The position numbers and the translations under genes are program-made. The notes beneath the pieces are model-generated. The model saw nothing but the letters and a program-made list of their open reading frames with translations. It was not told the DNA's origin and searched no databases. From Dirofilaria immitis (Eukaryota > Nematoda > Chromadorea > Rhabditida > Onchocercidae): a stretch of 64,000 nt of DNA. The stretch lies in the NCBI GenBank assembly GCA_024305405.1, contig JAKNDB010000092.1:2945501-3009500 (forward strand), read 5' to 3'. This document shows positions 35,813 through 44,800 of the stretch, piece by piece. Within the stretch, counting starts at the first letter, position 1. Each line of letters begins with the position of its first letter.

Positions 35813-38800
35813 ATGTTTGGCTGAGCGAATAATACTATTAACATTTATTGTCGCTTTTTTATGGCGAATTTAGCAAAGAACTATATAGTAAGCTTCTCAA
35901 TTCGATGTTAAAAATAATTAAATATGCGGCGGAATAAACAATAGACAATAAATGAAAATAAATAAGTCAAAAACATTATTCTGGTCAAAATGAATTTTTA
36001 TTATTAATTACAGTTAATAGAATCGACAACAGCGCCATTTCTCTCAGCGGAAGAATTGCGATATACATTCGGTGTGAACACCTTCTCTGATGGTATGTTA
36101 ACCTTGTTAGTAGTTATTGTTTATTCGAGTCCAATGCTGACATAATATCGTGCAACAGAAATTTCAGTGCAAGAGTTGTCAACAAAAACCAATTTATAAT
36201 TTTGGAATTTAGCATTTCGCTTTTTCATGAAGAAGTAAGTGACGATGCAGCAGCAGCAGCTAGTATTACAAAATGTGTTCATTTCTTCTTAATATAAGAT
36301 ATTAGAAATGTCTAATAATTTTTGATGATATTTAAATTACGATTGAAGATTAACGAATAATTCACCATCTTTTCTTTTAGTTAAAAATAATAGAGTGGTT
36401 TCCTTGTTAACTGAGAGTAGACATTAAGTAAAGAAGGAATAATCTGTTAATTAATTATATCGATCAAACGAATTCGATTCTCATTTTCAGTCTTGCCTTG
36501 GAAAAAATACTCATTGAGAAAATATTCATTTTTTCTCTTCTTTTATTAAAACTTTAGCAACTATTTTTTCAGAAATTTGGGCTTATTAAAAATATAATAC
36601 TGGCAAGAAACAAATGAGATATTGTTATCATATGAAATAATAATAATAATAATAATATTTCATTTATTTTCTGCTGAAAGAAAAGATCCAATGCATTTCT
36701 CGCCCAGCTTATTTTTGTTGCAGTTATAATGCTTTAAAAATATTTCCAAAAACTTTTGAAAAATGTGACATTTAATGTCAAAGTAGTGCAATAGTAATGG
36801 AATAATATTGTGCCATTTCATTTTTATTATAGCTATGAAAGATGAAGTAAATCGAAAATTAGGCCATAACTTTAATTTCGTATCTTCTTACTTTTTATTG
36901 GATGATGTCGAATTTCTACAAAGTGATTATAGTTGTTTTTATCCAACATATATTTTTACAGTGCCTCAACATGAAGAATTGTATCCTGAAACAGAGTATT
37001 CAAAAGATGGTCAATTAAAGCAGATTCAGATCACCATTCACAAAAGGCAAATAAACTTGACGTTACAGCCAAGCATTCAATCGCTTATATCACCGAATTT
37101 GAGGACCATTTTCCGAAATGCGCATGGTGGTGGAAAATTGGATATTGGAGTGGTACCAGCCAACTGTCATTATCAACACAAATCAGAGGAAGTGTACGCA
37201 GCTATCAGCAATTGTGATGGAAATCTCGTCAGTGCTTACTGTAGCTCATATTCGTTTTCTTCGTTAAATCCATTTTCGATGTGAATCGTTTAAAATATTC
37301 GTTTAAAGAATGTAATCGCATTTAATGAACATAGTTTACAGACAAAGGGACAAATGAAAGTGAAACAAGCATATTTTTGAATAAAAAACATATTTAATGC
37401 CGTTGGAAACGAAACATGCAAATAAAACGTAAAAGTTTTCGTAACTGTTAATTGATAAAGTTTTCGTAATTGCTATATTCTTTAAAATTTTAAATGTCTC
37501 AAAACTTCACGATAAACATTCGGATGCTGCAATAATTTAAACATTTTGACTTAAAATAATAAATTGTTATTTTTCAGAAAGGTGTAATTATGATGCCAGA
37601 TGAAGTTTATGTGTTACATCCATTACCCGATCGTCATGTTCATCGATTTGACCAGAACAGTCGAAATGGTACTGCCTATAGATTTTCAATGATTGTTCCA
37701 TTAAACTGTCAAGTTATTATTGATTTTATCTAGTTGGAAAGAAATTTAATAAATATGAGTGGAATGAAAAGACGGAACATTAGCTCGACATGTCGTATTA
37801 ACAAGGAAAAACACACAAAGCCTGAATAATTGAGTATGAATTCATATTTTTCTTGTTTGCTTTTTCAGGTATAATTACAACATTGAATGATATCATAAAA
37901 ATTTAGACTCAGATTCTGGATTGCATGTAATATACAAACGTGAAGTGGCGCAAAAAGAATTTTGCGGTCTCGAGTCGATAATAACATCGGCCGAACTCAC
38001 AGAGGACGAAAACGAAGTAAGCGAAGATATATTTGCAGTTGGACAACGCCTCAACGAAAAAAGTGAACTTATTGTTAGTTAATTTCATTTACTCTAAAGA
38101 GAAAATACTGCAATACTTGACATTACGATGGTATAATTCAAGTTTGACTTATTATAACACTAAATTTCATAAATTTCTATATAAAGTGATTGGCACGGAA
38201 ATGAAAAATATAGCTAACATAGTCATATTTCATTTTTAGATTTTTCCCAAATTCCGCCTTCTGATATCTTTTTTGCATAGCTAGTATTTGCACAAAAATC
38301 CTTCTTCTTCCTCTGGTTAAAAACGCAAGATGAATTTGAACGGATAGATTTTCCAAAACGTTCCATCAAATTCGATACTTTTTAAAATAGGAGTAAAATA
38401 GGAGTGGAATTTAACAATCCACATAATTATTTCCAATTTTCAACTTCTTGATTAGTGAAAAGAAATGAATTAACAAAGAGAGAAAGAAGATTAAAATATT
38501 TTTGGAATAAACTTCTTCGAACAGAAAGATAACATCAAGTAAATTATTGTTGTTACCGTTACTACCTACCATTATTTGCTTTCAAAGAAGAAAAACACCA
38601 TTACTGTAACACTGATAGCCGACGATGATTTTTATAGTATCTTGCTTCATTTTTGCAAGAAAATGTATCATAAAATTCTTTTTCTTTTTTAAACAATCCT
38701 TCGAAGATAAAGCTTCCAAAGTTCTACTGTATTTTCCGAATGAAATCTTTGATGATTATTAAATGAAGCATATAATTCGTTTATAATATTTTTAACCCTA

Positions 38801-41800
38801 AATTTTTCATTTTGCGCAACTTTCCCATGACAATCATATCGTTATTTAATTACAGATATCTTTTTCTTTAGCTTCACTTATCATGTTGATTATCGGAATA
38901 TTAAGGCTGGCCAAAATTCATAATGTCGTTAAAAAGTAGCATGAAAATGTGGTAGAGATTTGAAGAAATTAGGATGTAAATAAGTTCGATGTAGTATATG
39001 TATTTATAAGTTGCATAATTTAATGGTATTAAATTGGCACTTTTTCTTTGCAAAATATAAGATTTAAAAGATAAAAATATCACAAGCTTTATTAATAAAC
39101 GATTATGGATTTCAGTCAAAAATGAAGCAGACTTTTGAAAATACATCCTTTCAAAGACTGTTTAAAAAAGAGAAAAAGATTATTTCAATAATATCAACAT
39201 GAAATTCGTAATGGTCATTTCTGAGTAAGGAAAGTGAAAAAAATTCTCAGTAAATGGCAACGAAATTTTTGTTTTGTAACTTCAACAGAATCACATCTTG
39301 GCGAAATAAAATGCTGCAAGACTGGCCACTAAGTTTTTAGAAGTTTCTGATGTCTACGAATTAATAATTATTTAAGCCTTATTTTTCATCGTAATCTCAA
39401 GGCAATCGAAGAGTAGTTAATCCAAAGTCTAATTTTCAGGTGGAATTAGCAATATTTGTGGATGAAATGTTATGGAAGCTCTTTAGTAGTAAATATGGCA
39501 TAGATGCAAATAGTAAACTACAAGATTATGCGTTAACAATGCTTAATAACATACAAATTATGTATCACCAACCGAGTGCTATTCCTCAATTATCATTTCA
39601 TGTAGTGAGATTCGAGATGCTCACCACTCAGCCGGTATCACTTTTCCTTCAGTTTATTCCGATTTTTCAGGTTATCTTGTAATTTATATAAAATTTTCTG
39701 TACAATGCTCAGATTCTATGATCAACCTTATCGATTAATTGCCAAGGTAAACTAACCGATAATTTTGTAAAAATGTGTGAAAGATTAAGTGAAGTAAGCT
39801 ATTTTTAGAAAATAGAATTGAAAATATTAATCACATTTTAATTCCATTGTGAAACGCTTGAAATCTCAAAAAGAAAAAATATGCAAGGAAATTTCTGCTA
39901 CTTTAGTTGGTGCGAGAAGGATTGATATGTGGAGGATGATGACAGCCAATATATGAAAATACAAGAAGATTTAGAGTATTGATAAATGATGATACATAAA
40001 GATAAAAGTATTGAATGCTCCAGAATAATTTTGTCCAGATAGTTTGTTGAGTGTAAATATATAAGGAGAGAGATAGCAGGAATCAAATGAGGTAGGTACA
40101 TGACTATACTTATTTTACATCAGAAGTTTGATCGAGACTATCAAATAATTAATTCTCGAATCGTAAATGTTACAAAACAGCAAACCACGAAAATTTGGCA
40201 AAATCGTAAAAATAGTCAGGTTACGTGTCAAATATGAATTTCAGAGCACTATGGCAGCACATTTGCACAATAATGGACATGCTCAAAAATATCTGGATCG
40301 ATTCTGTCATTATCAACGAAATTTGGGTTCACGCGATTGGGATCACGCATTGATGCTTACAGGGTTCATTTTCATCATGTGTTTGACTATTCAAAACATT
40401 AAATTCAAGTAGAAACATCAGATGAAATTTACTGAATGCTGACAAAGAAAAATAAATGTTTGCGAACTGAATCACATCGAATTAAATCCTTTCATTCGCT
40501 CTTCCCGAATGGAATCGGTTAGCAGTTAGATTATATAGAAAATTGAAAAAGTCATATTAAATTAACTTTAGATACGACATCCATCGTGGTACTGGATCAC
40601 GATCCATAAGCGGTATCGCTCGATTGGATGGTATGTGTGATCCGTGGAATACTTGCACTTTGGCTGAAGGACTCGATTTTACATCAGCTTTTATTGGAAC
40701 CCATGAACTTGGTCACAGGTAGGTTCATTTACAAACTGATTAATTATCCGTCTAATTATATTTTTAACATTGAAATATTTTCTAACTAAATATTGCAGTG
40801 TTGGAATGCGTCATGATGAACCATACTGCCCATCAAAGCACATTATGAGTTCATCATTAGGTCCAGGAAAAGTTACTTGGTCAATGTGCAGCTTACGCGA
40901 CTACCATGCATTCTTGCAACGTCTCGAGTAGGTATCACTGCAAATTTACTTCTTTTAATATAGGATTTTATGTATTGGTGATTATTTGTAATTAAATTCG
41001 CTTAAGATTTTTTTGTTTTGCATCATTATTAAGATTTGATGACTTTCAGTAATCGTGGTAAAAATTGTTTACGAGTATCCAATCTACCACAAAAACTAAC
41101 AGTGAGAACGGATATCAAGCCAGGACAGGTTTACAATGCAGATATGCAATGTTATATAATGCATGGTCGGGGATATCGACAGGTTGATTCAATATTATTA
41201 GTATAATTTTCTTGCAACTTTTAATAAGATCAGTAATGTAACTATGATATAATTATGATTCTACGAATTATCGATAGATAGTTAGCTGATATTAAACCAA
41301 ATATTTTATATCAATAACTGTTAGATATTTTTGTATTGTCATTAGTTAAATTATACATAAATTTAAGAAATATCTGAAATGTGGGTATTAGTTTTATTTA
41401 TTATACTTTTTCGGTCTAGCAATGATTTTATGCACTAACACTAAGTACTGCATCTCTACAACGTCTGGATTTCATTGTATTCCATTTTTGATTTTTAAAT
41501 TTATCTGATAGTTTAATCTAGCTACTTGACTATTGCTTTCTCGCTGGTGTGAGAAATAATCTTATTTCACTATAAGCTTCAAGTTTTTTAATTAGCAAAC
41601 TGCCTGCAAAATGTTAAAAGTTATATACAACTTTTTAAAGTGCTAATAATGCTATTCTTAATGAGATTTGCTATTAAGAATTTTCAGGTAGAATTAGCAA
41701 TATTTGTGGATGAAATGTTATGGAAGAGATTTGCTTCCATAACATTTCATCCACAAATATTGCTAATTCTACCTGAAAATTAGACTTTGGATTAACTACT

Positions 41801-44800
41801 CTTCGATTGCCTTGAGATTACGATGAAAAATAAGGCTTAAATAATTATTAATTCGTAGACATGAGAAACTTCTAAAAACTTAGTGGCCAGTCTTGCAGCA
41901 TTTTATTTCACCAAGATGTGATTCTGTTGAAGTTACAAAACAAAAATTTCGTTGCCATTTACTGAGAATTTTTTTTCACTTTCCTTACTCAGAAATGACC
42001 ATTACGAATTTCATGTTGATATTATTGAAATAATCTTTTTCCTTTTTTAAACAGTCTTTGAAAGGATGTATTTTCAAAAGTCTGCTTCATTTTTTGACTG
42101 AAATCCATAATCGTTTATTAATAAAGCTTGTGATATTTTTATCTTTTAAATCTTATATTTTGCAAAGAAAAAACTGTTTTAATTAAGAATGATTCTCTAA
42201 AATTTTGGGAGAAATTTCTTTCTAATTTAGCTTGAAATATGCCTCTGAAAGTTCTGATCATAATTTTTAACTTTAAATTTGTACTAAAATAAAAAAATTA
42301 ACTTTAAATTTGTACTAAAATAAAAAGAACGAGTTCCATTTTAAAGAAATGTCATTTTTAAACGGATTTCCATTTTCTACTTTTATATTTGCTGTTTTCG
42401 TGCGATTCGTAAAAAGCAAAATAGGATCGATATTGTGTGGAATATATGAGTTTAGTCATCAGATAGGATCAGAAATATCTTTCCTCTTTTGGATCATTGA
42501 TAGTGGATATTTTCGTGAACAATTACACTTCTAATTGAAGGAGAGAAGATGGAAGAGAAATTTTGCAACGCTGTTCCGGATGTTTATCGGTGACTCGTTG
42601 TATATTTTGTTTTACTTTACCTTTTAAATTTCCTGATCATCATAATGTTTTTTCTAATCGATTCTTCTCCTCCATATCATGAAAATGTAGTGAAAAATTA
42701 TTTCAACATAGTGGTAACAGCAGTTTTCGAAATTGAGCCTTATTTAATATGACAACTACATTTAACAACATTTGAGCATTATTTGTTAAGACATATGAAA
42801 AAAATCAGTAGCATTGAATCTTCAATTGTGATCTTTAATGATAGCTATTACTAACTCTCAAAAATTTTTTAGATTACTGGCGAATGATATAAAACTTCTC
42901 TAGGCTATTAACTAAAGGATGATAATTAAAAAAATTAATAAATCAAAGAAAGATTTATTTTCATAACTAAGGATAAAAATAGGTAAGAAAATTCTATAGA
43001 TCAAAGGAGAAATTTTGAATAGATAAATTTCATCTAAAAATAGTAAATTAAACATTTTATCAGAGGGATTTTACGAAACAGTTTTAGATGCTTACTTTGA
43101 TTAAAATTATAATTGATTAAAATTCAATTTTTGTAATATTATATAAAAGAAAACTTAATATTGTATCTTTGATCTTTTTGTTATGAAACTTATATTAAAA
43201 ATTAATTTTCCTGAAAAATACAACCGATATGAAGCAAACCTTTCATGTTCATATTCTTCAGATTAGCCCGCGTCAGGACCATTACGATGGCATATGCTAT
43301 ATGATGTGGTGTGGACAGTCAACATTTGGTCGAATTATTACTTCTCATCCGGCTCTTGAGGGAACTTTCTGTGGTCCATCAAAATGGTGTGAACTTGGTC
43401 GATGTGTGCCGTGGCCGGGGATTAGTTCTTCTGCAATACCTAAGGTTGCTCTGATTTTTTCAGAAGAAGCAGGACTGAAAAGATAATGAATCGTTTAATG
43501 CATGAATCTTTCTATTATTCCACAAAATTATTTACTTAGTATAATAGATTTGAGAGATAGATACAGTCTTGCTCATTGTCTAAGTTTTAAACATAATAAG
43601 GAAGTAAGTGCTTTCTTGTTCATAATTTCCATTATTCTAATATTTGAATAAATTCTACATTCTCATTATCAGTCGAAAATATTCGTACTGAATTTAATAT
43701 CCCTTAAGATCTAAAATCTCGTCCTTATCAACTTGAACATTTTGCCATTGCAGCGTACTGATGGTCAATGGTCCAATTGGTCTAAAGTTTCTTGTCAATC
43801 GTGTAATTGCGCTGAAATAGCTGGTAGTATAAGTATTGCTAAAAGCACTCGAAGCTGCAACAATCCACCACCTTCGAATGGAGGCGCAGAATGTGTTGGT
43901 GCAACACTACGTGCAGTTGTATGCAATCGCCATTGCACTTCGTCTAACAAATCGGTTAATAAGGTAAATTTATAAGGCAAAGTTGTGAAGAACAAATAAG
44001 GTGAAGTGAAGGATTTATTTTACGAAAAAGGCGCAGAAAGAGAACTAATCTTTTTCGATACAATTACAATTTTTCTTTAAGATAAATTTAATGCTGATTT
44101 TCCTCATTTGATGTTTGCTCAATCGGTTTTTGTAGCATATTAAACAGCAATGTATGCAGCAGAAAAAGCTAAAAATGATTCAGATTTAAGTGGAAGTGGT
44201 ACTCAACTTACTCGTTACCCTCAACGTGCATGCAAGGTTTTCATTTTAATTAGGCAATTAATTAAGCAATTTTTTTTAAGTTTAATACATCCGATTTTGC
44301 TTCAGAAGGATCGCAACAAGTTTCCTTCAATAACACAACTTAAAAAAATAGCGTATAACATTGATGGTACAATTTTAAGCAGTTTTTGTTAGCAATTGAG
44401 ATTTACATATGATTCGGAAGTTTTAGATTTGAGAATTTAATTAATGTGTTTAAAAGAGATCTCTAGACAGAAAATGAGAATAATACAAGAAAGATTAAGC
44501 TAATATTTTAGTCAATAGTCTCCAATTGCACGGTAGTGAAAGTTATTCATCTATTTCGCTGAGAATTATATCAAACAGAATTTTAATCAGTTTTAAATGT
44601 TGTAATTTGTTGCAAATTTAGGTCTTTTGCGATGTCAAAAGTCGATATGGATCCCAGCGAAACTATCGCTTTTTGGTAATATTCTTCCAGACGGTGCTCC
44701 ATGTGGGAATAAAAATATTGTTTAGATGGCGAATGTCTCGTTAGTTTTCAAATTATTCAACACTGATTGCAGGAAAGACGATGTAATGTAATGTCTTGGA

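What the first reader, a model, noticed from the sequence alone, without database searches (positions are those of the whole stretch)
39041..42173. Large inverted repeat brackets the catalytic exons of an ADAMTS gene
A 440-bp segment covering the 3' splice site and first 39 bases of exon 6 is present again, inverted and nearly identical, in intron 10. The arms enclose exons 6-10, which encode the zinc-binding domain. Inverted complementary sequences around exons are an established driver of exon circularisation and skipping, and of A-to-I editing by ADAR. Here the stem itself contains the acceptor of exon 6. Genomic recombination between the arms would invert the catalytic exons.
Basis: partly seen in the sequence, partly recalled or inferred. 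Interest (0 to 1): 0.75.

Follow-up and report, generated by a model that had tools for sequence, protein, structure and literature searches.

The report
Young inverted insert in adt-2 intron
In a heartworm gene called adt-2, a 440-letter piece around the start of one exon appears again, backwards, in a later intron together with a perfect hairpin, probably from a fairly recent DNA copying slip; it could make the RNA fold back and mis-splice, but no effect has been shown.

Summary
The inverted repeat is real: 39041-39479 (arm A: end of intron 5, first 40 nt of exon 6) recurs inverted at 41733-42172 (arm B, intron 10), 98.6% identical. Exons 1-12 encode 603 of 603 residues of a Dirofilaria immitis ADT-2 model. 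Short repeats at the joints favour a young, complex template-switch insertion.

RNA effects are inferred only. Exons 6-10 (723 nt, phase 0-0) hold the protease domain, so circularisation or 5-to-11 skipping stays in frame. D competes with exon 6 for B: full A:B pairing wins by 15 kcal/mol at equilibrium, though the hairpin may form first. D is a decoy acceptor leading to an early stop; B carries 37 nt antisense to the mRNA. Intronic inverted repeats are common in C. elegans (PMC4282642), and a larger one appeared in a 324-kb sample here: unusual in detail, not in kind. No reads, RNA or relatives' DNA were available.

The parts
39041..39479 (+). Arm A: source copy, last 399 nt of intron 5 with the exon-6 acceptor plus first 40 nt of exon 6
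41733..42172 (-). Arm B: inverted copy of arm A inside intron 10
   Evidence: 98.6% over 441 columns
41679..41726 (+). D: direct 48-nt copy of the exon-6 acceptor region (source 39431-39478, one difference); with 41734-41781 forms a perfect 48-bp palindrome
41727..41733 (+). 7-nt loop AGATTTG of the palindrome, inside the 10-mer GAGATTTGCT (41726-41735), which in the window occurs only here and at 41663-41672
   Evidence: 5000 shuffles, P 0.001; test chosen after seeing the match
41673..41681 (+). ATTAAGAAT, left copy of a 9-nt direct repeat around the insert; overlaps the first 3 nt of D
   Evidence: P 0.025, weak; the 9-mer also occurs once more in the same and three times in the reverse sense in the window
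42182..42190 (+). ATTAAGAAT, right copy of the flanking direct repeat
40245..40363 (+). adt-2 exon 7
40572..40718 (+). adt-2 exon 8 (HELGH half of the zinc motif)
40799..40927 (+). adt-2 exon 9 (rest of the zinc motif and the IMSSSLG segment)
41050..41182 (+). adt-2 exon 10
43262..43444 (+). adt-2 exon 11, first exon after the inverted arm

Best explanation
A young structural mutation, found at one place in this assembly, in adt-2 of the heartworm Dirofilaria immitis. During replication or break repair the polymerase working in intron 10 switched template at short homologies: it copied 48 nt of the exon-6 start forwards, returned to the local sequence GAGATTTGCT, then copied about 440 nt of the same place in reverse before resuming intron 10. 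(The pieces and joints are shown; the mechanism and the order of steps are inferred.) Transcribed, the insert would give a perfect 48-bp hairpin in intron 10 and a long-range duplex of 387-435 predicted pairs between introns 5 and 10. The most likely effect is an ADAR-accessible intronic dsRNA with low-level circularisation or in-frame skipping of exons 6-10 and otherwise normal splicing, i.e. close to neutral (inferred).
For: Arms 98.6% identical. One further genomic match, 77 nt; three neighbouring stretches of 496, 1028 and 941 nt matched only themselves at E <= 0.001. D is the exact reverse complement of 41734-41781 and shares B's base at the one site where it differs from A. The loop 10-mer recurs 63 nt upstream (5000 shuffles, P 0.001). 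The gene is coding-intact through exon 12: 603 of 603 residues equal D. immitis model P0032. Exons 6-10 are 723 nt, phase 0-0, with no stop in the circle or in the 5-11 join. Predicted A:B duplex -701.7 and hairpin -74.4 kcal/mol. Two stretches of ADAR deaminase domain above cut-off on one contig. Template switching is a described maker of perfect hairpins (PMC8794818, abstract and opening).
Against: No ortholog DNA, so the ancestral intron and the number of events are not seen. The 9-nt flanking repeat is weak (P 0.025) and nine bases next to B (42173-42181) have no assigned template; both shuffle tests were chosen after seeing the matches. No RNA data. Another near-identical inverted repeat (arms about 1.48 kb, 99%, 311-nt spacer) turned up in the 324 kb sampled, so such repeats may be common here or partly due to assembly.
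Confidence: 0.7

Rival explanations
1. Functional RNA switch: the A:B duplex drives regulated circularisation or skipping of exons 6-10, giving a protease-less ADAMTS-like protein, with D tuning whether the exon-6 acceptor is masked.
For: In-frame 723-nt cassette covering the protease domain; C. elegans deletions show such matches promote both products, and in glr-2 a match even extends to a 3' splice site (PMC8330042 sections 7-8); two alternative folds differ by 15 kcal/mol out of about 1250.
Against: Near-identical arms point to a recent event with no conservation seen; the D. immitis model P0032 is the ordinary linear form, though a gene model is not RNA evidence; the matching phase may be coincidence; the skip would also cut off the first 21 residues of the ADAMTS_CR_2 match.
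Confidence: 0.15
2. Assembly or library artefact: fold-back reads or merged haplotypes created the inverted copy.
For: The assembly may be an imperfect long-read one: three frame breaks downstream (near 44172, 44672, 44713) where model P0032 reads on, and two of the three arm indels lie in A-runs. A larger inverted repeat was found in the sample.
Against: The sequence returns to the forward strand and to exon 11 after B, which a simple fold-back read would not (reasoning, not tested). Three substitutions separate the arms. Flanking stretches matched only themselves.
Confidence: 0.1
3. Insertion of a mobile element (foldback or MITE-like).
For: 9-nt direct repeat around the insert; a 77-nt patch on another contig.
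Against: The insert is this gene's own acceptor and exon start; no inverted pair of 20 nt or more joins the two ends of the insert; no further full copy among the matches.
Confidence: 0.04

Closest known systems
Replication template-switch mutations that make perfect hairpins (Monttinen and Loytynoja 2022, PMC8794818; abstract and opening seen)
   Same: Reverse-complement copy of nearby sequence giving a perfect stem
   Different: Here two pieces, 48 nt and 440 nt; the source lies 2.2 kb away and includes a splice acceptor; no ancestral sequence to prove it
Microhomology-mediated break-induced replication and templated insertions (PMC8421209; search listing only)
   Same: Templated copies joined at short homology
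   Different: Described there in cancer genomes; order of events here is inferred
Reverse complementary matches flanking circularised exons in C. elegans (PMC8330042; abstract and sections 7-8 read)
   Same: Complementary sequence in the two introns around an exon set; one case there also reaches a 3' splice site (glr-2)
   Different: Long and nearly perfect here, one arm runs into the exon and a competing copy exists; no circle shown
Intronic inverted repeats forming edited dsRNA in C. elegans (PMC4282642; passages)
   Same: Inverted repeats in long introns; about 25% of expressed genes there
   Different: Here the arms sit in two different introns and one includes coding sequence; no editing data
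Hairpin-RNA loci silencing genes in Drosophila simulans (PMC10317233, PMC10292708; search listings only)
   Same: Hairpin complementary to a gene's mRNA
   Different: Here inside the intron of the very gene it matches; no small RNAs shown

Membership tests
Replication template-switch mutation | Nearby reverse-complement copy at high identity | tested here: met
Replication template-switch mutation | Switch points with short homology | tested here: inconclusive
   10-mer P 0.001; 9-mer P 0.025; nine bases unassigned; tests post hoc
Replication template-switch mutation | Ancestral sequence without the insert | not testable with these tools
   DNA of filarial relatives is not in the collections I had
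circRNA flanked by reverse complementary matches | Complementary stretches in both flanking introns | tested here: met
   introns of 1366 and 2079 nt
circRNA flanked by reverse complementary matches | Back-spliced junction reads | not testable with these tools
   no RNA data
Transposable element (foldback or MITE) | Several dispersed full copies | tested here: not met
   (best candidates only)
Transposable element (foldback or MITE) | Terminal inverted repeats at the insert's ends | tested here: not met
   no inverted pair of 20 nt or more joins the two ends; shorter ones not tested
Hairpin RNA (hpRNA) locus | Long perfect stem antisense to an mRNA | tested here: met
   48-bp stem; 37-nt exact antisense run in exon 6
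Hairpin RNA (hpRNA) locus | 21-23-nt small RNAs from the stem | not testable with these tools
   no small-RNA data
ADAMTS (adt-2) | Reprolysin domain with HExxHxxGxxHD and ADAMTS Cys-rich domain; identity to a named adt-2 | tested here: met

The most novel reading that the evidence does not exclude
A newborn self-targeting hairpin: the intron-10 stem is diced into small RNAs with up to 37 nt of perfect antisense to exon 6 of its own mRNA, while D and exon 6 compete for B as a two-state RNA switch over the exon-6 acceptor, so that one copying slip gave adt-2 a built-in negative feedback and a protease-less isoform.
Probability: 0.06. Interest if true: 0.75.

Novelty: new member of a known kind. 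Interest (0 to 1): 0.4.

Why it matters
If real and transcribed, it is a natural test of what a sudden long intronic duplex does to splicing: an arm carrying an acceptor, a competing local copy of that acceptor in a perfect hairpin, and an in-frame cassette that removes the protease from an extracellular-matrix enzyme. The C. elegans namesake ADT-2 regulates body size through TGF-beta signalling and cuticle collagen (stated in PMC4856095, passage seen, citing Fernando et al. 2011, not read). It also shows a likely first step by which a gene acquires a hairpin complementary to itself.

Tried and rejected
Rejected: chance; old conserved element (arms 98.6%); dispersed repeat or transposon; pseudogene (603 of 603 residues match P0032 and runs of the rest to residue 1041 of 1042 are found in order; the three frame breaks are more simply sequence errors); known structured RNA (Rfam at gathering thresholds, 0 matches over 38000-43300). 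The idea that D fully protects the exon-6 acceptor was weakened by the fold: the free minimum keeps A:B fully paired, and forcing the hairpin costs 15.0 kcal/mol. The idea that the repeat is unique in this genome was weakened by the C65 repeat; with 264 kb of C21 alone it had seemed unique. One search had 21 same-block pairs at E 1e-6, of which I looked only at the 7 of 50 nt or more and 85% or more; the same cut gave 8, and simple sequence was masked in both. The Dicer domain search gave nothing in this genome nor in any control genome, so it is uninformative. Paper one search (10 of 11 titles listed) showed nothing on template-switch origin of hairpins; one search did. I found no paper on this repeat, but only two of ten searches concerned Dirofilaria genomes (10 of 36 listed, 3 of 3). 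One pseudo-exon translation started at the wrong base and was redone. A homopolymer count was looked at for signs of undercalling and gave no clear answer.

Full report
WHAT IS THERE. Arm A (39041-39479) and arm B (41733-42172, inverted) align over 441 columns with 3 substitutions and 3 single-base indels, 98.6%. Arm A is the last 399 nt of intron 5 and the first 40 nt of exon 6; arm B lies in intron 10. In the window's own assembly (86.7 Mb, 65 contigs) arm A gave four matches: itself, B, D and a 77-nt patch on contig C65 at 95% (a 121-nt core searched at E up to 10 found the same three places that cover it). Three neighbouring stretches (496, 1028 and 941 nt) matched only themselves at E <= 0.001. 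The tool scores only its best candidates and skips simple repeats, so these counts are lower bounds.

THE GENE. Joined exons 1-12, with an 18-nt microexon at 37342-37359, translate to 603 residues identical to the first 603 of P0032, which its source names Dirofilaria immitis adt-2. So the window is from D. immitis or something indistinguishable at this protein. Of the other three proteins aligned, Onchocerca volvulus has 513 of 573 identical, O. flexuosa 414 of 453 and Brugia malayi 476 of 571. Pfam finds Reprolysin (226-405) and ADAMTS_CR_2 (422-491) in the 573-residue join; the best solved relatives are ADAMTS-13, -5, -1 and -4. After exon 12, runs of P0032 are found in order to its residue 1041 of 1042, but the frame breaks at three places near 44172, 44672 and 44713. 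P0032 is a gene model, not a cDNA. I take the breaks as sequence errors. A nanopore D. immitis assembly of 87.9 Mb and 110 contigs is in print (PMC9179477, abstract and sections 4 and 8 read); whether this is that assembly is not shown, and size and contig number differ.

HOW RARE. In a sample of 324 kb (this window, 200 kb more of C21, 60 kb of C65) two inverted pairs reach 400 nt and 95%: this one and a pair on C65 with arms of about 1.48 kb, 99%, 311-nt spacer. A perfect palindrome with arms of 20 or more and a loop up to 60 occurs once in the 324 kb, here. The sample is under 0.4% of the genome, and 264 of the 324 kb are one neighbourhood. In C. elegans about 25% of expressed genes have an inverted repeat in an intron over 1 kb (PMC4282642, passage), so an intronic inverted repeat as such is ordinary; size, identity and the exon overlap are less so.

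ORIGIN. Arm A is the source, because it holds a conserved coding exon start. The loop lies in GAGATTTGCT, which in the window occurs only there and just upstream of D at 41663; a shared run of 10 was reached in 0.1% of 5000 shuffles of the 100-nt flank. The end of that 10-mer overlaps B by three bases. ATTAAGAAT stands on both sides of the insert (41673, 42182), which shuffles reach in 2.5%; the 9-mer also occurs once more in the same sense and three times reversed in the window, one of them at 41654. Both tests were chosen after the matches were seen. D shares B's base at the site where it differs from A, a silent valine-codon position in exon 6. The simplest reading is one serial template-switch event, with A changing later; two events cannot be excluded. 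Nine bases (42173-42181) have no assigned source. Three substitutions in 438 aligned sites argue for a recent origin; I give no date because no rate was measured.

WHAT IT COULD DO (INFERRED). Exons 6-10 are 723 nt and phase 0-0; the circle has no stop in frame, and joining exon 5 to 11 stays open while removing 241 residues that include the Reprolysin match and the first 21 residues of the Cys-rich match. In C. elegans, deleting one intronic match made circles undetectable or very low in six genes and lowered skipped transcripts in the three genes tested; in glr-2 a match extends to a 3' splice site (PMC8330042 sections 7-8). Circles are reported in the parasitic nematodes Haemonchus and Ascaris (PMC8645938, PMC9194832; listings only). 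Edited regions in C. elegans nearly all hold inverted repeats or transposons, with no reproducible exonic editing in that study (PMC4282642). This genome has two stretches of the ADAR deaminase domain on one contig and 19 stretches of the RdRP domain on three contigs, some with stops inside; the Dicer search is uninformative.

THE COMPETITION. D and exon 6 compete for the same 48 nt of B. Free folding of 38800-42400 gives -1252.8 kcal/mol with A:B fully paired (435 of A's bases), the exon-6 acceptor inside. Forcing the D:B hairpin gives -1237.8, frees that acceptor from B and keeps 387 A:B pairs. With pairing limited to 600 nt, as a stand-in for early co-transcriptional folding, the hairpin forms (45 of 48 pairs). 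D's acceptor scores 9.1, equal to exon 6's own, against 4.7-11.5 for the 12 used acceptors (a small matrix built from those same 12). From exon 10 it would run in frame for 31 codons to a stop.

SELF-ANTISENSE. B holds 37 nt of exact antisense to exon 6 (39443-39479), enough for 22-mers against the gene's own mRNA. This is the boldest reading and rests on complementarity alone.

VERDICT. The acceptor-bearing arm with its own decoy copy in a perfect hairpin is the unusual part.

Noticed in passing
G000 contig C65:2517135-2520414 (held part in L033:7548-10000): Near-identical inverted repeat, arms about 1.48 kb, 99%, 311-nt spacer; no ORF of 60 aa or more over L033:6500-10000; beyond itself only a 99-nt (90%) and a 55-nt (84%) partial match were listed.
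   Followed up: partly
L003:1501-1577 (C65:3561723-3561799): A 77-nt patch nearly identical to the middle of arm A (one 3-nt gap and one mismatch against A) on another contig, unexplained.
   Followed up: partly
window 37342-37359: An 18-nt microexon (TKGQMK) in the region before the protease domain, present in the D. immitis model P0032.
   Followed up: yes
window 44172, 44672, 44713: Three frame breaks in later exons where model P0032 reads on; probably sequence errors.
   Followed up: partly
window 42267-42326: Two perfect tandem copies of a unit of about 31 nt shortly after arm B.
   Followed up: no
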